Below the pieces are notes generated by a model, which had not been told where the DNA came from, made no database searches, and was given only the letters and a program-made list of their open reading frames with translations. The position numbers were made by a program, and so were the translations under genes. Shown here piece after piece: positions 5,147 through 36,483 of a DNA stretch of 39,105 bases (the first letter of the stretch is position 1; each line of letters begins with the position of its first letter). The stretch is from Verrucomicrobia bacterium UBA3222 (GTDB lineage Bacteria; Verrucomicrobiota; Verrucomicrobiia; Opitutales; UBA9783). Location: the NCBI GenBank assembly GCA_002363035.1, contig DEWA01000005.1:1-39105 (forward strand), written 5' to 3'.

Positions 5147-5201
5147 CTCCTTTTATCTTGCCTATTTCGGATAAAAATTCCCGTATAAGAGTGTTCTTCT
5201 T

Positions 5202-5287
5202 GCCCGGATGGCGGAACGGTAGACGCTGAGGACTTAAAATCCTCTGATCGTAAGATCGTGCGGGTTCGAGTCCCGCTCCGGGCACCA
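5202..5287 (+). tRNA. tRNA-Leu (anticodon UAA)
   Basis: An 86-base class II tRNA with encoded CCA. The acceptor stem GCCCGGA (5202-5208) pairs with TCCGGGC (5277-5283), followed by the discriminator A and CCA. The anticodon stem GAGGA/TCCTC encloses loop CTTAAAA with anticodon TAA (5235-5237). A long variable arm (TGATCGTAAGATCGT) and the T loop GGTTCGAGTCC follow, as expected for leucine. It is transcribed away from rplU. Confidence 0.97.
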
Positions 5288-5446
5288 GGTTCCGAAGCGA
5301 TTTGTATTGTACCGCGTTCGAATGTGCTCCGAATGTATAAGATTCGAAGGTTAGGGGATGGATTGTAAGTATTTATGTGACGGGTTCCGAGCATTTGAGT
5401 GATGCGCTTTGCGTTGTCGCGGAATGGGCTTCAAGCGTCGCGTCGC

Positions 5447-5554: not shown

Positions 5555-5914
5555 GGCTTCGGGTATCGGACGGTTATTTGTGAGGGCCTTGAGCATGTAA
5601 AGGCTTTAAGGATGTAAAAAAGGAACAGATTGCGGCTACCGAAAAGATAGGAACCGCATGTCGGGAGAAACGGATCCCGAACGTCAAATTTCCAAAAGTT
5701 CTTAATTTATTTCAGCACTATATAGGTTATTTCAATAACCTGCTCCGTCGAATGAGGAACGGCATATCTGCCCGTTTCGTACCGCCAGCCGTTTTTTATT
5801 TAAAAAGCGCAAAAAAGTCCCATTCATTCCCTGACGTTTAATTTCCTCCGAACTTTATCCCTTCTCAATCGTTTTATCTCCTTTTAATACCTTTTAAATA
5901 AAATCCGTAAATTA

Positions 5915-5943
5915 TTGACATGTTTTATAAAAAACGATATTGA
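5915..5943 (+). promoter_or_regulatory. Sigma-70-type promoter of the giant Cys-rich gene
   Basis: A perfect -35 TTGACA (5915-5920) and a -10 TATTGA (5938-5943) are separated by exactly 17 bases. Transcription from here would begin near 5950, downstream of the TTG at 5940, which supports the ATG at 5979 as the true start. AAAGG (5969-5973) lies five bases before that ATG. Confidence 0.65.
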
Positions 5944-5978
5944 AAACCGCTTCGAAAACGCTTAAACTAAAGGCAACT

Positions 5979-8900
5979 ATGAGCCCGATCAGGATGTTAA
6001 AGTTGTTTTCAGCGGCGGCAGTCGTCGGGTTTTCCGCTACGAATGCGCAGGCGTGGTTTTGTCCGAAGTGCAATGTAAAACACGAGGAGGCGATTTGTCC
6101 GAACGCGAACACAACGGATCAATTCGGCATTTGGCAGCCGACCTGGTGGTGCGACGCATGCAACAGCATTCATTTTCCGAAACAGTGGTGGTGGGATGGG
6201 GAGCAACTGCTGGTGACCTGTAAAAACGGGTGCTGGCCGTGTCAAACGTGCAACGCGGTTCATTCCGCCGAAGATACCTTCACCCCAAACGCCTGGTGTT
6301 GTCCGATATGCCGAACGAAACACACCGGAGGTCAGTCGTATTGCGAGCAAACGCAGGGTAATAACACAAAGGAAGTGTGGTATTGCCCGAGCTGTAACAA
6401 ACCGCACGGGACGTACGAACCGTGCGAATCGGCATGGTTTTGCGACGAATGCAAAAAAGGGCATCTTATCGGCGAGACCTGCCCGAACGGTCGTTGGTAC
6501 TGCAGTATTTGTCAAAAGGCTTACGCCGAAAACGATAAGTGTGAACACAGTTGGAATTGTCCCACGGTCGGCGGTTGCGGGAAAACCCATCGATTCAACG
6601 AAATCTGCCCGAAAGGCAATATGTACTGTTTATCGTGCAGGAAGGTTCTGTTAAAGGATGGCAGTTGTGACCATTATTGGGCGTGTTCAGCGTGCAACAA
6701 ACATCACGCGATGAACGAAACTTGCCCGAACAATTACTGGTATTGTACGGAATGCAAAGAAGCAAAGCAGGCGGATGAGGAATGCGAACACGCCTGGTAT
6801 TGTTCCGTTTGCCACGGTTCGTACGCCATCGGGCAACCGTGCGCCTGCGGTAAATTTTACTGCAGAGCGGAAGATAAGAGACTGGCGATCGGAGAAAATT
6901 GTCCGCACTACTGGTGGTGCGCAACGGAGGAAAAACACCACGCGGCGGACTTTGTCTGTACCGCAACGGATCCTCATCGCTGGTACTGCCTGACCTGCCA
7001 AACGGCGGTTGATGTCGGGAAAGCCTGCAACGATTTCTGGTATTGTACCGCCTGCGCGCAACGGCATGCGTTGAATGACGTTTGCCCGAACGGACGTTTT
7101 TATTGTTCTTCCTGCAACGGTGTTCTGGAAAAAACGCAGCATTGCGGGCATTACTGGGCATGTCCGATCTGCGAAACGCACCACACGATGAATGACGTTT
7201 GCCCGAACAATTACTGGTTCTGCGCGACCTGTCAACAGGCATATGCGACGGATGGGCATTGTGAGCACGGCTGGCACTGCGAAACATGCAAAAGAATTTA
7301 CGCTTTGGATGCCTGTTGCGAACACAGCTGGTATTGTCCTGGCGACGAAAGCAAGCACCCCCGATCGGATACCAATGTCGACGGCTATTGTGTATGTGGG
7401 ACGTGCAATAAGATCCTCGCACCGAACGAAACCTGCGAGCACTACTGGGCATGCGCAACACATAATACGCATCATGCCGCGGATGCCGTGTGTCCCGAAA
7501 GCAATTTATGGTATTGCGAAACGTGCAAAACAACCTACGCTTTGGATGCCTGTTGCGATCATTCCTGGTATTGCCCGGGAGATCAACAAAAGCACCCCCG
7601 ATCGGATACCGATGTCGCCGGCTATTGCGTGTGCGAGACGTGCAAAAGGATCCTCGCGCCGAACGAAAACTGCCCGCACTACTGGTATTGTACGACGGAA
7701 AGCAAACACCACGCGGCAGATGTTGTGTGTACCGCGACGAATCCGCATCGCTGGTATTGCCCGAATGAAGCATGTCGAAAGGCTTACGACGTCGGGAAGG
7801 CGTGTGCGCATTCCTGGTACTGCACCGCCTGCGCGCAACGGCATGCATTGGATGAAGAATGTCAAAACGGTTGGCGATACTGCACAAATTGCGAGAAAAT
7901 TTTGGAACGAGAAGAAAATTGCGGCCATTACTGGTGGTGTGCAACCTGCACAACCCACCATGCCGTCGGTTCCGACTGCCCACAGGATCACAGCTGGTAT
8001 TGTTCCGATTGCCCTGGTGTGTACGCCGCAACCGCAAGCTGTGAACATCGTTGGTACTGTTCCGATCATTTGACACATCACACGACCCAGACGGATCCAC
8101 ACTGCGAGTACGGCTGGTATTGCCCGAAGTGCAATGAACGGCATACGTTCACGGAAGCCTGCGCTGAAGGTTATTGGTATTGCAAAGAAGACGGCTGTCG
8201 GTGTGCGTATAATTCGTTAAATCAAACGTCCTGTACGCATTCCTGGTATTGTTACGTCGATAACGACCATGCGGGACATCGCTACAGCCATTTGAAGACG
8301 GCGACCTGCTCCGACAAGTATCGTTGGTGCGGCGAAGACGGTTGCGATCGTGTTTATGCGCCGGAACAGCATTGTGCCCACAAGTGGTGGTGTACAACGC
8401 ACACCGATTGGCACGCATATGACGCAACCTGCAACGGCAACTGGTTCTGCGAAAACTGCCTGACGGTTCAGGATGCCGATACCGCTTGTAGTCATTACTG
8501 GTATTGTCCGGGATGCACAAACAAACACACGACCTCTACGGCAAACTGCCCGAGCAGCGGCTATGGTTATTGTGCAACGGATACCGCCCGTCTCGCGCCG
8601 AACGAAAACTGTGCCCATTTTTGGTATTGTACGACGGAAAACAAACACCACGCGGCAGATGACATTTGTACCGCAACGGATCCGCATCGCTGGTATTGCC
8701 CGAACGAAGCGTGTCGTACGGCTTACGACGTCGGCAAGGCGTGCGCGCACTCCTGGTACTGCGACGGATGTAAAACAAAACATGCTTTGGACGAGACTTG
8801 TCCCAACGGCTACATGTATTGTTCGAACCAGGGCTGTAAAAAAGTTCTAAGTCCGACCGAAAGCTGTGTGCATTATTGGGCATGCCCCGAGTGTGAAAAA

Positions 8901-11900
8901 ACACACCATGCGGCGGTGGAGAGTGACCCATGCCCGCAGCATTACTGGTTCTGCATTGATTGTTTCCGGGCGGATCCAACGAAGGGAATTTATGCGCAAA
9001 CGGACGGTTGCCCGCATCATTGGTGGTGCGGTGATTGCAACGGCGGCAGCGGTCAACGTTACGCCGAAAATAAATCCTGCGAACATCGTTGGGGGTGTTC
9101 CAACGATGCAACGGGACACGCTTACAACGAAGCCTGTTCTGTCGGCAACTGGTACTGCACCGATTGCGAAGGCGGCACGCGTTACGCTTCCGGCACGCAA
9201 TCTCTCTGTGCCCACACCTGGTATTGCCCCGATTGCCACTACGGGCATAAGATCGCCGACGGTTGCGCAACGCGTTGGTATTGTCCTCAGTGCGACGACG
9301 AAAACAAGGTACATGCGGTTGAAAATGAGATGTATTGCGACCATTCGTGGTACTGCATAACGTGCCAAAAAGGGCATTTATTCACGGTACCGTGTCCGAA
9401 TGGTTATTGGTATTGCAAAGACGAAAACTGTCGGTGTGCCTATAATTCGTCGGAACGAACATCCTGCGATCACTCCTGGTATTGTTATGTTGATGAAGAA
9501 TATCCCGGGTGCAAATTCGGACATTTGAAGACCGAAACCTGCCCGAATCACTACCGTTGGTGCGGCGAAGACGGTTGCGAATGTGTTTATCCGCCAGATA
9601 CGCCGTGTGCGCACTGCTGGGAATGCCCGACGTGTCAAATCACGTATGGCCCGAACGCAATGTGTCCGACCGACAACACCTGGTGTTGCGGATGCCCTGC
9701 CGTTGATAGTTCTGAAACAAAGCCTTTCTGCACGGGCTGCAAACGATGGGTTTGTTCCGATTGTCCCGCGATCGTTGCGGTTAAAAACGGCACTGATGTC
9801 TGTGCGCACAAGTGGTTCTGTGCCGACCATAACCGACTGAACACCGCAAATGAAAAATGTGCCGAAGAGGGCTGCGAGTTTTTCGGTTGTGCAACATGCG
9901 GAGTGTGGAAGGGGATCACGAAGGGCTGGTTCTGCTGTAGGCATTATTGGTTTTGTGAGCTATGTACACCCTATACGCTCCACCCCGCGAACGTTGACGT
10001 TTGCCCCGACTGCCGAAACGGATGGTTCTGCCAGATCTGTACGAGAGTCTACAGGAATTGGGATTATGAACAGGAATCCGACCCCGTCCATTACTGGTTT
10101 TGCCGCAAGGATCACGTGAGGAACCCCGTCAATCAACCCTGTCCGGAATGTAACGGGTGGTTTTGCTCGATCTGTAAAGTAATTTGTTCGAATGAAACCG
10201 ATTCCAAAGGGCACACACGCCCCGAATCGCTCCAAAATGCCCCGCTTTTGCATGCCAAAAAGGCATTTTTCAAGGAATCGCCGTTTATTAACGATATTCC
10301 GTTGTTGGATGTTTTTAAGGAAAACAACAAGCCGTTCGAAGAAGTGCATTCATCCAATGACGTGCCCGAAGAGAAAAATCTCATCAATACCGTCGAGCGA
10401 TCGGTTCATTCGGAAGGAGACGAACCGAAGCAACGGCTTTTACATGTGGTGGAAAAGCTCAAACGGAAAAAGCTCAAACGGAAAAAGGAAAAACTGTTCC
10501 GCGAGGATTTGAAGAAAGAATACAAACATTCGTTATCGTCTTCCTCTTCTTCAAAGGGCAAGGATGCCAAACCGCATAAGAAGTTTATTATAAACATGCG
10601 CAAAAAGTATTCCAATGACGAAGACCCGAAAGAATTCGATCCAAAGCATCCGTTGCGCAATACGATCCGTGCCGGAGAACATCCCGAGTTTAAGTACAAC
10701 GGCTGCAAACATACGCATGCAAAAAATCTGAACATCGATGTTCACACAACCGCTTTGAAGAAGACGACCCCGAACGGCTCGAAACGGGAAGGGTACAAAC
10801 CGATAAACGCTTCGAAGGTCGAATTCAAATTACCGAAGCAATCGGATTCCGACAAGTACCCGCAGTTGACGCAGTCGCACATCAAATACTCAAAGCAGGA
10901 AGATGTGAAGCGGTTATCGTCGGAGAAGAAAGAGGAGAAAAAAGTACCTCAATCTTCGAAGGGCGAAGGACCGAAATTGGAGTACTGCTTCGATATCGGT
11001 AAGCATATGCGCAACATTAATGTCGATCCTTCAGGTTTGAGCGACCTCGAGGATAGGGCGAAAAAGATAGAAGAATTGCGGGTCTGCGAACTGAAACGCG
11101 AGCTGATCCAAGCTTCAAAGGCGCAGTCGTCAAAGTCCAAAAAGGACGGCATTTCGATCGTTCCGTCGCTGTCGAAGGTCATTAAAAACAGCGAAAGGAA
11201 GAAGGCAGCTCCTTCGTCCGTGCCGTCCGACAACAAGGAGTCGAAGAAGCAATCGACGTTTAAACCCTCTTCTTCGAGTTCCGATTCGGACGAATCCGAA
11301 ACGCCGAAAGGAAATGCAAAAGATTCGAAGATATACACCAATAAGCCGACGGATGATTTGCAAAAAAACGTCTCTAAGAAGACCTGTAGGGAGGACGAAG
11401 GGAACGAAACGCCGCCGAATTCGCAGACAAGTTCAGGGTTTAATCTTTTGAAATCTCCGGAAAACCAACATGCCGCTCCGAACGCTTCCGCCTCGAAACA
11501 GAACCTGACCGGATTCCCGTCATCACAAACCGAACCGCAACAGATTGGTTTCAAGACGATTGAAGGACCGAAGGAACCGTCGAAATCTCTGAAGTCGGAC
11601 GAGGAGACACCGAAAGGCGATACGCCGAACGGTGAGATGCCCAAGGGTGAAACGCCGAAGTCGAACGCGAAGAACAACAAATCCGACGGCAATTTCTCTT
11701 TGGATGAGGAAAAGAAGTTGTCTCACTCGAAATCTTCGAAAAAATCTTCGAAGAAGTCCGTAAAGACGTATTCGCGCGACAATCACTCCGAAAAGCATTC
11801 GGATAACGGATATTATTCATTGTCCGATAAGGAAAATAATAAAGAAGGTTCATCCTCGGAAGATGCCGTCTCGTCTCACTCGAAGCGTTCCTCGAAAAAG

Positions 11901-12044
11901 TCCGTGAAAAACGATGGTATTTTCGACAAATCCCTCGCCGAAAGCATCATCGTTAACAACAAACCTTCAGACGAGGAAAAACAGAAAAACCCGGACGAAG
12001 AGAGCGACGAAAGCAAAGAAGATTCGGAAACGCCCGGAAAGTAG
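5979..12044 (+). CDS. Giant exported Cys/His/Trp-repeat protein, unknown family
   Basis: 2021 residues from the ATG with a good AAAGG site. Residues 1-25 form a signal peptide (basic MSPIRMLK start, hydrophobic core, ATNAQA cleavage context). Residues 26 to about 1404 are some 65 modules of about 20 residues. The core is aromatic-x-C-x2-C-x3-H/Y-x4-8-C, as in WFCPKCNVKHEEAIC or YWACSACNKHHAMNETC, close to a CCHC zinc-knuckle spacing; some modules lose the second Cys (WYCTTESKHH) or replace His by Tyr. Nearly every module carries Trp-Tyr or Tyr-Trp before its first Cys. Larger blocks are themselves duplicated. From about 1405 to the end the protein is charged and low-complexity (Ser, Lys, Glu, Pro), with poly-Ser and KSSKKS-type runs. 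I see no membrane anchor, sorting signal or enzyme domain. The gene appears monocistronic. Metal binding or a disulfide-rich extracellular fibre are inferences; I recognise no family. Confidence 0.85.
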   Translation: MSPIRMLKLFSAAAVVGFSATNAQAWFCPKCNVKHEEAICPNANTTDQFGIWQPTWWCDACNSIHFPKQWWWDGEQLLVTCKNGCWPCQTCNAVHSAEDTFTPNAWCCPICRTKHTGGQSYCEQTQGNNTKEVWYCPSCNKPHGTYEPCESAWFCDECKKGHLIGETCPNGRWYCSICQKAYAENDKCEHSWNCPTVGGCGKTHRFNEICPKGNMYCLSCRKVLLKDGSCDHYWACSACNKHHAMNETCPNNYWYCTECKEAKQADEECEHAWYCSVCHGSYAIGQPCACGKFYCRAEDKRLAIGENCPHYWWCATEEKHHAADFVCTATDPHRWYCLTCQTAVDVGKACNDFWYCTACAQRHALNDVCPNGRFYCSSCNGVLEKTQHCGHYWACPICETHHTMNDVCPNNYWFCATCQQAYATDGHCEHGWHCETCKRIYALDACCEHSWYCPGDESKHPRSDTNVDGYCVCGTCNKILAPNETCEHYWACATHNTHHAADAVCPESNLWYCETCKTTYALDACCDHSWYCPGDQQKHPRSDTDVAGYCVCETCKRILAPNENCPHYWYCTTESKHHAADVVCTATNPHRWYCPNEACRKAYDVGKACAHSWYCTACAQRHALDEECQNGWRYCTNCEKILEREENCGHYWWCATCTTHHAVGSDCPQDHSWYCSDCPGVYAATASCEHRWYCSDHLTHHTTQTDPHCEYGWYCPKCNERHTFTEACAEGYWYCKEDGCRCAYNSLNQTSCTHSWYCYVDNDHAGHRYSHLKTATCSDKYRWCGEDGCDRVYAPEQHCAHKWWCTTHTDWHAYDATCNGNWFCENCLTVQDADTACSHYWYCPGCTNKHTTSTANCPSSGYGYCATDTARLAPNENCAHFWYCTTENKHHAADDICTATDPHRWYCPNEACRTAYDVGKACAHSWYCDGCKTKHALDETCPNGYMYCSNQGCKKVLSPTESCVHYWACPECEKTHHAAVESDPCPQHYWFCIDCFRADPTKGIYAQTDGCPHHWWCGDCNGGSGQRYAENKSCEHRWGCSNDATGHAYNEACSVGNWYCTDCEGGTRYASGTQSLCAHTWYCPDCHYGHKIADGCATRWYCPQCDDENKVHAVENEMYCDHSWYCITCQKGHLFTVPCPNGYWYCKDENCRCAYNSSERTSCDHSWYCYVDEEYPGCKFGHLKTETCPNHYRWCGEDGCECVYPPDTPCAHCWECPTCQITYGPNAMCPTDNTWCCGCPAVDSSETKPFCTGCKRWVCSDCPAIVAVKNGTDVCAHKWFCADHNRLNTANEKCAEEGCEFFGCATCGVWKGITKGWFCCRHYWFCELCTPYTLHPANVDVCPDCRNGWFCQICTRVYRNWDYEQESDPVHYWFCRKDHVRNPVNQPCPECNGWFCSICKVICSNETDSKGHTRPESLQNAPLLHAKKAFFKESPFINDIPLLDVFKENNKPFEEVHSSNDVPEEKNLINTVERSVHSEGDEPKQRLLHVVEKLKRKKLKRKKEKLFREDLKKEYKHSLSSSSSSKGKDAKPHKKFIINMRKKYSNDEDPKEFDPKHPLRNTIRAGEHPEFKYNGCKHTHAKNLNIDVHTTALKKTTPNGSKREGYKPINASKVEFKLPKQSDSDKYPQLTQSHIKYSKQEDVKRLSSEKKEEKKVPQSSKGEGPKLEYCFDIGKHMRNINVDPSGLSDLEDRAKKIEELRVCELKRELIQASKAQSSKSKKDGISIVPSLSKVIKNSERKKAAPSSVPSDNKESKKQSTFKPSSSSSDSDESETPKGNAKDSKIYTNKPTDDLQKNVSKKTCREDEGNETPPNSQTSSGFNLLKSPENQHAAPNASASKQNLTGFPSSQTEPQQIGFKTIEGPKEPSKSLKSDEETPKGDTPNGEMPKGETPKSNAKNNKSDGNFSLDEEKKLSHSKSSKKSSKKSVKTYSRDNHSEKHSDNGYYSLSDKENNKEGSSSEDAVSSHSKRSSKKSVKNDGIFDKSLAESIIVNNKPSDEEKQKNPDEESDESKEDSETPGK

Positions 12045-12071
12045 GATGCCGCTTATCAAAGCAAACCGCGG

Positions 12072-12100
12072 CGGACGATCATGAAGGTCGTCCGTTTGTT
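12072..12100 (+). terminator. Hairpin terminator after the giant gene
   Basis: CGGACGA (12072-12078) pairs perfectly with TCGTCCG (12088-12094) around a nine-base loop and is followed by TTTGTT. It lies 28 bases after the giant gene's TAG, so it probably ends that transcript. Confidence 0.65.
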
Positions 12101-12217
12101 GGGAGGGCGAAAATGTCAAACGCAGTTGTCGCCCGGAGACAAACTTGCGACTGTCGGGATCCTTGTCGAAAGAATTCGCGAATTTTTTGATGATGTGCGG
12201 GAAGACGGCGCCCCGCT

Positions 12218-16954: not shown

Positions 16955-17725
16955 CTAAAACTGATATGTCAGACCGATTTCGGCGGCGTGGCTCATGTTT
17001 TGTTTTACCTTCCAATCCCACCGGTAATTACCACCCCATTTCTTTGAACCATCGACATCTCCCGCCAAATACCGCAAACGGTAACCGGCAGTCAACGACC
17101 AATTTTCATTTAAACAAACACCTGCTCCCGCAAAAGCCTGCAACAAGAACCGCCACTTGGCTTTGAAATCAATCTTTCCGGTTTGAGCTACACCGGCATC
17201 GTCAAACTTACAGTTAAATTCACCAAAATCCGAACGCGCCATACCGGCACCGACACCGCCGTACAAAAATGCTCGTTCGCCGACATCCTTTTTCAACGTC
17301 ACATTAGCGGCGGCAAAAAGATTTTTGCATTTCCCGTCTGCAACGGCATAGCTATCGTTTAGCCAATTTATAATGGAGTGAGGAGCCGCATATTTTGCCC
17401 CCTCGTTAGCATCAAATTCATGTTTTGCTTTTCCCGTAAAATATCCCAGTTCCAATCCGACCAATATGCGATCCTCATAAACTGAAACGCCGAATTCAGC
17501 AGAACCCGACCATGCTCTTTTAAGGCTTTCTTTACGATCGCCGTTAATTTTGTGAACACCGTCGATAAAACAATCGTTATACTTCGTCTTTCCTCCGAAC
17601 AGCCATCCGCCGCGCAACGTCACGTACGGGTTCCACTCCCGCTCGTAATCAACGTCCGCTCTCGACGCCACGCCCGACGACAGCACCCCGACGATGCCTG
17701 CCGTAAAAAGAAACCTGCTTCTCAC
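16955..17725 (-). CDS. Outer-membrane beta-barrel protein
   Basis: 256 residues with a signal peptide (MRSRFLFTAGIVGVLSSGVASRA, cleavage after about residue 23) and an alternating-strand barrel pattern: YVTLRGGWLFGG, AEFGVSVYEDRILVGLELGYF, AFLYGGVGAGMARSDFG, FLLQAFAGAGVCLNENWSLTAGYRLRYL. It ends in Phe (AAEIGLTYQF), the usual recognition signal for BAM-mediated insertion. It resembles the general OmpA-like/OMP_b-brl superfamily; the ligand or role is unknown. The start is a GTG with GGAG eight bases upstream. A (GTAT)3 tetranucleotide run lies just before that site. It ends at a strong terminator and appears monocistronic. Confidence 0.8.
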   Translation of the reverse strand: MRSRFLFTAGIVGVLSSGVASRADVDYEREWNPYVTLRGGWLFGGKTKYNDCFIDGVHKINGDRKESLKRAWSGSAEFGVSVYEDRILVGLELGYFTGKAKHEFDANEGAKYAAPHSIINWLNDSYAVADGKCKNLFAAANVTLKKDVGERAFLYGGVGAGMARSDFGEFNCKFDDAGVAQTGKIDFKAKWRFLLQAFAGAGVCLNENWSLTAGYRLRYLAGDVDGSKKWGGNYRWDWKVKQNMSHAAEIGLTYQF

Positions 17726-29927: not shown

Positions 29928-29945
29928 TGTTTTTACCAACTTTTT

Positions 29946-30006
29946 CAACGCACGCACTCAACGCACGCACTCAACGCACGCACTCAACGCACGCACTCAA
30001 CGCACT
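29946..30006. repeat. 13-base tandem repeat, four copies plus a partial
   Basis: CAACGCACGCACT repeats perfectly at 29946, 29959, 29972 and 29985, followed by a nine-base partial copy (29998-30006). It lies between a minus-strand promoter and the start of the BamE-like lipoprotein gene, making up most of the untranslated leader. Perfect copies suggest a recent or mutable array. Confidence 0.9.
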
Positions 30007-35149: not shown

Positions 35150-36459
35150 ATGAATGTGAAGACTTTATAAACAAAATAGCATATACACACATAATGGGAT
35201 GCGCGGCGGCTTTAACCGTCGGTGCATGGGCGGAAAACGCGAAAGCGGAGTATACGAATGCAAATGCCATGAAAGTGCATTGGAAGGTTTCAAACAATTT
35301 GTTCCCGAAGGCATTCGACGACAGTTTCCGGCGTTCGGATTTTTATTGGTTGTGGAGTGCAACTTTTTCGCAAAATTTTAAGCATGAAAAGGGCGATCTT
35401 TACAGCATAAGGAAAGCCACCGATTCCGTTTCGTATCATAAATTTCACACCGCGGATGATTTGAAAAAGCTGCCGATCGATGCTTCATTGAAAAAAATCT
35501 GCAAAGCTCTCGGGAGCAGGAATTTTCTCATGTGGATTTTGGATGAGGTAACCGTCAATACCGTTCGCGACAGAAGCATGCAGCCTAATCGAGAGACGAC
35601 CGTTACGTTTACGCCATGTTATGACGGAGAAACCTTTTTTGATGCATACGGTAAGGGAAGATTGATGATGAGCATTTATCAATCTCCGAACGGAGGAACT
35701 GCGGATCTTTGTTGCAGCTTTGATTTTACATTCAAAAAAGAAGATGAAAATGTATCCATGATAGGATATGACGCATATTACCGTGTCGGTCACGATTCGG
35801 TTAATTTCCGTTTTTATCCAAGACCGTAGGCATTGGCGGGTCTGCCTTACTCTTCGATTGGTAAAAGCGGATTGAGAATAATTGATACATATCGGGACTT
35901 GCGCAATGTGCTTTACGAGCGTGGTCACAAGGGTTTTGAGAAACATTGGGCGGTGCGTATCAACGGCGAAGAACCGAAAGAATTTAGGGTGCCTCTTTTT
36001 CTTTTTGACGGAGATCGGGCACATTGGGCAGGTGTCTACACGCGTACGTTGTGTAAAATTCTTCCGTCGGAAGCATTTTTGAAGAGGATTTTTGGGGAAG
36101 ATGTGTGGAAGATCCTTGAAAAATATAATCGAGTCAATCGGAGAGCCGGTGACTTTAGAATTGATTATACCATCAGGCCTCTCAAAGACGGTAGATATTG
36201 GCAGCATCAGGATCCGGATCAGTTTGAAGTTTATTTAAGGATTTCGGATAGGGTTCGGTATTCAAAAAGTAATAAGCCTTCCTTTGGATATAACGATGGT
36301 GATTTTAAAGAGGAGGATTTTAATTTCATCGGTTTCCGTTTTATTTTTGATATCGAAAAAAACAAAATCCGCGATGTAAAGTTCTGTGATAAGGTATGTG
36401 TGGACGGCGAGCTCATCGCACAGGGAGAAACAGAGGAAACTACATGGGATTTGTACTAA
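35150..36459 (+). pseudogene. Exported two-domain protein of unknown family, interrupted
   Basis: An ATG at 35150 opens M-N-V-K-T-L and then stops. Shifting by one base at the TTT of 35164-35166 gives a very good signal peptide (NVKT, then INKIAYTHIMGCAAALTVGAWA, then AENAKA) joined to a long frame. That frame runs to a TAG at 35827-35829 and continues in the same frame without another stop to TAA at 36459. The two halves look homologous: LPIDASLKKICK / LPSEAFLKRIFG, then WILDEVTVN / KILEKYNRVN, then TVTFTPCYDGETFF / RIDYTIRPLKDGRYW. Each half is therefore one copy of an unrecognised domain of about 200 residues. In-frame alternative starts are ATG 35194 for the first half and TTG 35833 for the second. 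Neighbouring base composition is lower in GC. Confidence 0.65.
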
Positions 36460-36483
36460 TAACTACATGGGATTTGTACTAAT
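36438..36483. repeat. 23-base perfect tandem duplication at the gene's 3' end
   Basis: 36438-36460 is repeated exactly at 36461-36483. The unit begins AACTACATGGG and ends TTGTACTAAT; it carries the last codons and the TAA stop of the interrupted two-domain gene. The second copy lies outside the coding frame. This is a fresh-looking duplication. Confidence 0.95.

What the first reader, a model, noticed from the sequence alone, without database searches (positions are those of the whole stretch)
5979..12044. 2021-residue exported protein built from about 65 Cys/His/Trp knuckle-like modules
Each module of about 20 residues follows aromatic-x-C-x2-C-x3-H/Y-x4-8-C, close to CCHC zinc-knuckle spacing, and nearly all carry Trp-Tyr before the first Cys. 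A signal peptide sends the protein out of the cytoplasm, where zinc knuckles are rare. I know no bacterial family with this architecture. It could be a metal-sequestering or redox-sensitive surface fibre. It has its own strong promoter and terminator. This is the best candidate for an undescribed system in the window.
Basis: partly seen in the sequence, partly recalled or inferred. Interest (0 to 1): 0.9.

Follow-up and report, generated by a model that had tools for sequence, protein, structure and literature searches.

The report
Giant exported zinc-module array protein
A tiny-genome Verrucomicrobium, probably living inside a microbial eukaryote, makes a giant exported protein strung from about 64 small units that each appear to hold one zinc atom, a kind of bacterial fibre that we did not find described.

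Summary
The ORF is real (5979-12044, 2021 aa).

The key new result concerns the metal site. Among 155 distinct canonical modules from seven related proteins, a His sits either at the knuckle position (CxxCx3H) in 68 or at the end (CxH) in 51, never both (22 expected; p=1e-17). Cys or Asp fills the end slot in 20 of the other 36. No other offset tested shows significant exclusion. That is the logic of one four-ligand (zinc) site per module with a movable fourth ligand. AlphaFold2 models four modules as repeated beta-hairpins (pLDDT 92.6).

No significant Pfam, NCBIfam, PHROG or PDB match. Among genomes searched, only its own genus has it (2 of 372 in the order). Array length varies more than threefold while the tail stays 583-707 aa.

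The 0.96 Mb genome has two ATP/ADP translocases and type III injectisome parts (SctV, SctC), but no DsbA or VKOR hit: probably a protist endosymbiont.

Best reading: an exported, zinc-folded, length-variable stalk facing a host cell's reducing interior. Zinc site likely; export likely; function inferred.

The parts
5202..5287 (+). tRNA-Leu(UAA), conserved neighbour upstream
   Evidence: ARAGORN, Rfam; the block 5194-5333 is 91% identical to L015 6661-6800, also just upstream of the relative's gene
5679..5978 (+). conserved upstream region with a TTGACA box
   Evidence: part of an 83% identical DNA block (5679-6502) shared with L015; alignment. Promoter activity not shown
5979..6053 (+). putative Sec signal peptide, residues 1-25
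   Evidence: conserved in relatives. By inspection, no SignalP run
6054..10235 (+). array of about 64 Cys/His/Trp modules, residues 26-1419; residues 1-1419 have net charge -56
7038..7271 (+). four-module segment modelled at high confidence (pLDDT 92.6, pTM 0.75)
10236..12041 (+). Lys/Ser/Glu-rich tail, ~602 residues, net charge +22; the tail of relative P0005 models with low confidence
12066..12102 (+). 3' hairpin, possible terminator
   Evidence: fold; a similar hairpin lies after the gene in L015
12218..12853 (-). convergent neighbour with a type IV pilin-like N-terminus; not shown to belong to the system
   Evidence: Pfam N_methyl 20.8 bits, just under its cut-off of 21.2

Best explanation
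It is an exported, single-copy, length-variable stalk or fibre made of about 64 tandem beta-hairpin modules. Each typical module is held by one zinc-type site of three Cys and one His: CCHC, or CCCH with the fourth ligand moved to the C-x-H end, sometimes replaced by Cys or Asp. It ends in a net-basic, probably disordered tail of ~600 residues. The bacterium appears to be an anaerobic, intracellular symbiont of a microbial eukaryote. Sec export (inferred from the signal peptide), possibly followed by the type II-like secretin, places the protein on the cell surface or in the host compartment. There a thiol-reducing, zinc-containing environment lets zinc, not disulfides, fold the array. The array serves as a spacer whose length changes by gain and loss of module blocks; the conserved first modules and the constant tail are the working ends (binding or anchoring). 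Shown by computation: modules, ligand exclusion, model of four modules, length variation, genomic context. Inferred: zinc itself, location, host, stalk role.
For: Ligand logic: 155 distinct canonical modules, knuckle-H 68, C-x-H 51, both 0 (22 expected), neither 36, p=1.4e-17; 'both' is 0 in each of seven proteins, p under 0.05 in six of seven. It holds after clustering at 70% identity (knuckle-H 37, C-x-H 37, both 0, neither 27, p=2e-10), no other of eight offsets shows significant exclusion, and C or D fills the end slot in 20 of 36 'neither' modules against 2 of 68 knuckle-H modules. Fold: repeated hairpins, pLDDT 92.6, pTM 0.75. Conservation: C/W/H invariant at 41 of 42 sites against 58 of 125 others in five N-termini (P0005 left out as a near-copy), dN/dS 0.19 over the first 192 codons. 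Architecture: in relatives with a signal peptide the array ends at residue 651 (P0003), 701 (P0004), 1419 (P0001) and 2220 (P0007), with tails of 558-618 aa; one clean 152-residue block separates P0004 and P0005, otherwise 1095/1127 identical. Context: two ATP/ADP translocases in G000 and in 9 of 9 family genomes, SctV and SctC above cut-off, no DsbA or VKOR hit in 3 of 3 genus genomes, anaerobic ribonucleotide reductase in the window. Literature: Opitutales families LL51 and UBA9783 listed as protist endosymbionts (PMC11257099, passages).
Against: No metal was measured. AlphaFold2 places no metal, and I could not see coordinates to check ligand geometry. With a looser definition (His anywhere between the second and third Cys) 9 of 106 modules have both His. 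16 of 36 'neither' modules have neither C nor D in the end slot, and only 35 of ~64 modules of P0001 fit the canonical form that was counted. Two inherited module types would also give the exclusion pattern. The full-length model of P0005 is poor (mean pLDDT 42.2; only about residues 101-340 at 70-87), and its later modules are nearly as uncertain as its tail, so disorder of the tail is not cleanly shown. Assignment of this genome to LL51 or UBA9783 is not established, and PMC12306168 proposes that UBA9783 could be free-living scavengers. No anchor motif was recognised, and the way out across the outer membrane is unknown. G001 of the same genus has no hit, though it is only 76% complete.
Confidence: 0.45

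Rival explanations
1. Zinc store or metal-sequestering protein: the array's purpose is to hold ~64 zinc ions, in competition with the host or for the symbiont's own use.
For: Very high density of apparent sites; export signal.
Against: Ordered hairpins with conserved Trp suit a structural role better than a labile store. Pfam matches of the 17 window neighbours scanned (not every ORF of the window) name no metal transporter or metal regulator; distant genes were not surveyed for this.
Confidence: 0.15
2. Disulfide-linked rod: the Cys form disulfides in the envelope, as in many extracellular Cys-rich repeats, and the His are incidental.
For: Exported Cys-rich proteins are usually oxidised (general knowledge).
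Against: Three Cys per typical module, and a fourth ligand His/Cys/Asp that is usually present once. No DsbA hit (control: 8 of 14 genomes ring) and no VKOR hit (control: 3 of 14 ring) in the three genus genomes; other disulfide enzymes were not sought. Anaerobic setting.
Confidence: 0.15
3. Secreted nucleic-acid-binding effector acting in the host cytosol or nucleus, by analogy with CCHC knuckle proteins and with the endonuclear relatives of this bacterial group.
For: The best, non-significant sequence match in the PDB is the AIR2 zinc-knuckle protein (E 0.021). Basic tail. The 'Nucleococcus cluster' of Verrucomicrobia includes nuclear endosymbionts (PMC8204192, passages).
Against: The array is acidic in all five proteins measured (-7 to -128). 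The basic-cluster pattern found in the P0001 tail has no match in P0006 or P0007. Sec-type N-terminus by eye, not a type III signal.
Confidence: 0.12
4. Iron or iron-sulfur electron-carrying array (rubredoxin-like sites with aromatic ladders).
For: Cys-rich sites spaced ~20 residues apart with Trp/Tyr between.
Against: His/Asp as fourth ligand and a movable ligand position are typical of zinc sites (general knowledge); no rubredoxin-type family match; PMC12306168 reports no respiratory chain in UBA9783, if this genome belongs there.
Confidence: 0.04

Closest known systems
CCHC zinc-knuckle proteins (AIR2, ZCCHC4; retroviral nucleocapsid knuckles recalled)
   Same: Tandem ~20-residue modules with C-x2-C ... 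H ... C ligands; AIR2 is the top, non-significant PDB sequence match (E 0.021) and ZCCHC4 the top, non-significant fold match (E 0.18)
   Different: Spacing C-x2-C-x3-H-x4..9-C, not C-x2-C-x4-H-x4-C (recalled); a third of canonical modules (51 of 155) carry the fourth ligand at C-x-H; export signal; Trp before the first Cys; acidic array; ~64 copies instead of a few; no Pfam match
Zinc-ribbon and double-zinc-ribbon arrays (DZANK-type, LysW-type)
   Same: Beta-hairpin built round a CxxC knuckle; weak, non-significant fold matches include LysW and phage double zinc ribbons
   Different: Usual zinc ribbons use two CxxC knuckles (recalled); here one CxxC plus C or C-x-H; no significant match by sequence or fold
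Giant repeat adhesins such as SiiE of Salmonella (53 BIg domains with calcium sites; start of abstract in a search listing)
   Same: Very long exported array of like domains with metal sites; variable repeat number in such proteins (recalled)
   Different: Unrelated module, Cys/His sites instead of calcium sites, ~20 residues instead of ~90 (recalled), no type I secretion or anchor signature recognised

Membership tests
Pfam-A / NCBIfam / PHROGs families in general | profile match over the curated cut-off or at a significant E-value | tested here: not met
   Pfam: P0001 best SH3_9 E 0.31; 0 families for 7 of 7 members at E 0.1. NCBIfam: none for P0001; P0007 only TIGR00927 at 11.4 bits against a cut-off of 710, over the tail. 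PHROGs: none for P0001, P0007
CCHC zinc knuckle | C-x2-C-x4-H-x4-C spacing (recalled) | tested here: not met
   His lies 4 residues after the second Cys (C-x2-C-x3-H) in 68 of 155 modules, and 51 carry C-x-H instead; His 5 residues after the second Cys (the classic spacing) in 9 of 155
CCHC zinc knuckle | binds zinc | not testable with these tools
   one-fourth-ligand pattern supports it; needs metal analysis
CCHC zinc knuckle | binds nucleic acid through basic and aromatic residues | not testable with these tools
   array net charge -7 to -128 in five proteins argues against
Multihaem cytochrome | CXXCH motifs | tested here: not met
   His directly after the second Cys in only 12 of 155 modules
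Polymorphic toxin | C-terminal toxin domain that varies between relatives | tested here: not met
   no Pfam domain in 7 of 7 members; six of seven keep the same kind of tail end, P0002 alone ends differently
Giant repeat adhesin | export signal and a long array of like domains | tested here: met
   array; signal peptide by inspection and conservation only
Giant repeat adhesin | surface anchor or dedicated secretion signature | tested here: inconclusive
   none recognised by eye or by Pfam; secretins resembling type II GspD and a type IV pilus protein exist in the genome
Giant repeat adhesin | adhesion shown | not testable with these tools

The most novel reading that the evidence does not exclude
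A new class of exported protein polymer: an intracellular bacterium builds a giant zinc-folded fibre that works in the reducing interior (cytosol, vacuole or nucleus) of its protist host, where disulfide-based surface fibres could not form, and tunes its length by recombining modules whose fourth metal ligand has changed place.
Probability: 0.3. Interest if true: 0.87.

Novelty: new variant of a known kind. Interest (0 to 1): 0.74.

Why it matters
Zinc modules of this size are known mainly inside cells, in short arrays, and mostly for nucleic-acid binding (general knowledge). An exported array of ~64 (94 in the relative P0007 by the same parse) would show zinc used as a cheap replacement for disulfides in building an extracellular bacterial fibre, probably because 'outside' is another cell. 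It also gives a natural series of modules in which the fourth ligand sits in two alternative places, which makes the evolution of metal sites directly testable. Finally, it points to an unstudied host-interaction surface in tiny-genome Verrucomicrobiota, a group whose lifestyle is described differently in two papers (PMC12306168, PMC11257099).

Tried and rejected
Chance or low complexity: rejected by shuffles, purifying selection and C/W/H conservation. Phage origin: no hit in phage records or viral contigs; plasmid records were not searched. Multihaem cytochrome: rejected, few CXXCH. Polymorphic toxin: rejected, no toxin domain; the passages of PMC3482391 that I saw describe nothing like it. 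Nuclear-targeting idea: weakened, because the array is acidic and the basic-cluster pattern is not in every relative. Strong promoter: not supported. Foldseek and VIA-align: no significant PDB match; many of the weak rows are zinc-binding proteins as I recall them, which I did not count or test against a control. The first module alignment A2 lost register (329 columns for a target of 97 residues), so a smaller in-register set A3 (18 rows) was used for the fold; A2 was used once more, in the family search. The full-length model of P0005 was too poor for a fold search. One search printed no self-repeat pairs of P0001, so intra-protein duplication rests. The matched letters of the basic-cluster pattern printed blank; only positions were seen.

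Rows dropped: in the ligand count only modules of the form C-x2-C...C starting before 85% of each protein's length were used (35 of ~64 in P0001); P0008 was not included; repeats were collapsed to 155 distinct. In the N-terminal conservation count, P0005 and columns with gaps were left out. P0002 and P0006 lack a signal peptide (probably incomplete), so their array lengths are not compared.
Full report
What is there. The window holds one ORF at 5979-12044 (+), 2021 residues. A TTG start at 5940 would add 13 residues; four of six database relatives are called from that position, so the start is not settled. Residues 1-25 (MSPIRMLKLFSAAAVVGFSATNAQA) read as a Sec signal peptide by eye, and relatives with a complete N-terminus keep it. 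Residues ~26-1419 hold 64-65 modules at a median spacing of 21 residues. The motif aromatic-x-C-x2-C occurs 37 times against 3.5 (max 12) in 2000 shuffles.

The metal-site evidence. Scanning seven relatives for C-x2-C-x3-X-...-C-x-E gave 155 distinct modules: X is His in 68, E is His in 51, both in 0, neither in 36; under independence 22 'both' are expected (Fisher p=1.4e-17). Within single proteins 'both' is 0 in seven of seven, with p under 0.05 in six (P0001 5.9e-5, P0007 2.5e-6; P0002 0.081). Clustering modules at 90, 80, 70, 60 and 50% identity leaves zero 'both' each time (p from 4e-15 to 0.036). Of eight offsets after the second Cys, only the knuckle position shows significant exclusion; the next lowest p is 0.06. 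In the 36 'neither' modules the end slot is Cys or Asp in 20, against 2 of 68 in knuckle-H modules (p=9e-10). The plain reading is one four-ligand site per module, with the fourth ligand in one of two places. Caveats: an earlier, looser count (His anywhere between the second and third Cys) found 9 of 106 modules with both, still with depletion (p=2e-10); two old module types inherited by descent would give the same table, so it shows that each type has one such ligand, not how often the switch happened; 16 modules lack Cys, Asp or His there; modules with C-x4/5-C or C-x2-H were not counted.

Who else has it. Database search: 5 proteins among 727 candidates, the same 5 among 1996 with the alignment, and one 260-residue, probably partial protein among 140; their organisms are not named. 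Genomes, own included: 2 of 50 relatives, 2 of 3 in the genus, 2 of 9 in the family, 1 of 384 in the class (own only; G002 was apparently not in the draw), 2 of 372 in the order. One record in genome contigs, an uncultured Verrucomicrobia MAG; none in viral contigs or phages. All listed matches in each of the two genomes lie at one locus. So it is a genus-level invention on present evidence.

Evolution. In five N-termini C, W and H are invariant at 41 of 42 sites against 58 of 125 for other residues (p=2e-10); dN/dS between window and L015 is 0.19 over 192 codons. Later parts of the array resemble its first 407 residues at 37-50% identity, so modules spread by duplication. Among proteins with a signal peptide the array ends at residue 651 (P0003), 701 (P0004), 1419 (P0001) and 2220 (P0007); P0006, without a signal peptide, ends at 754. 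In these five the rest is 558-618 residues with net charge +21 to +27, and the array side is acidic, -7 to -128. Measured from the last aromatic-x-C, the tail is 583-707 residues in seven of seven. P0004 and P0005 are identical at 1095 of 1127 aligned residues but differ by one clean 152-residue block cut between equivalent places in two modules; P0005 comes from a source labelled lgn, and misassembly is possible. P0002 ends in a different, possibly coiled-coil C-terminus.

Locus. The tRNA-Leu and the upstream region travel with the gene in L015, while genes further upstream differ (L21 here; an O-antigen ligase-like protein there). A 3' hairpin is present in both. Promoter-like and terminator-like sites are not above chance in the region.

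The organism. The genome is 0.96 Mb in 46 contigs, 90% complete; 9 of 9 family members held are 0.7-1.1 Mb. ATP/ADP translocases (PF03219), a hallmark of energy parasites inside eukaryotic cells, were sought in 16 genomes that I chose: two copies in each of the 9 family members, one in each of 5 other small genomes, none in the 2 large ones, none in 14 control genomes. The FHIPEP family (type III or flagellar export gate) is present in 7 of 11 genomes, own included, and absent from 4; in G000 it is SctV (916 bits, cut-off 692), and one of three secretins is SctC (339 bits, cut-off 238). The other two secretins resemble type II GspD and a type IV pilus protein, below cut-off. No DsbA (8 of 14 controls ring) or VKOR (3 of 14 controls ring) hit in 3 of 3 genus genomes, which are 76-91% complete; other disulfide enzymes were not sought. 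The window encodes an anaerobic ribonucleotide reductase. PMC11257099 (passages) lists Opitutales families LL51 and UBA9783 among protist endosymbionts and notes such translocases in Opitutales; PMC8204192 (passages) describes a 'Nucleococcus cluster' with nuclear and cytoplasmic endosymbionts. Against this, PMC12306168 (whole text) judges UBA9783 from farm-animal faeces to be possible free-living scavengers. I did not place this genome in either family; order Opitutales and a gut habitat are my inference from the MAG title, the genome-size mix and these papers.

Mechanism. Most likely: Sec export, zinc-folded modules stacked into a stiff, length-variable stalk, with conserved end modules and a flexible tail for contact or anchoring, facing a host cell interior where thiols stay reduced. 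Likelihoods by step (my judgement): exported 0.85; zinc-type site per module 0.75; intracellular life 0.7; stalk or fibre role 0.45. Rivals are listed with their refuters.

Novelty. Four literature searches on the protein's themes and six on the organism or its sample listed no paper whose title or abstract start describes such a protein; I saw only the listed rows (at most 15 per call), and the library holds only open-licence PMC papers. The nearest kinds are zinc-knuckle and zinc-ribbon arrays inside cells, and giant metal-stiffened adhesins outside cells; this looks like an undescribed combination with a new module.

Noticed in passing
G000:C17 (L079:1417-3516) and G000:C4 (L092:4475-6640): SctV and SctC of an injectisome in a ~1 Mb Verrucomicrobiota genome with two ATP/ADP translocases; a weak SseD translocon-like hit (25.7 bits, cut-off 130) lies at L089:5979-7238. 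Bears on the disputed lifestyle of tiny-genome Opitutales.
   Followed up: partly
L079:3594-4341: A HepT/MntA-like gene pair beside SctV; both under the curated cut-offs.
   Followed up: no
P0002, last ~90 residues: One relative has a different C-terminus, possibly coiled-coil, after the shared tail; could be recombination or a second form.
   Followed up: partly
window 29945-30005: 13-bp perfect tandem repeat, 4.7 copies (TCAACGCACGCAC).
   Followed up: no
window 36438-36483: Perfect 23-bp direct repeat, two copies.
   Followed up: no
window 16955-17725 (-): 256-aa ORF with a weak outer-membrane beta-barrel match (PF13505, E 1.2e-4, under cut-off), a possible surface protein near the locus.
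   Followed up: no
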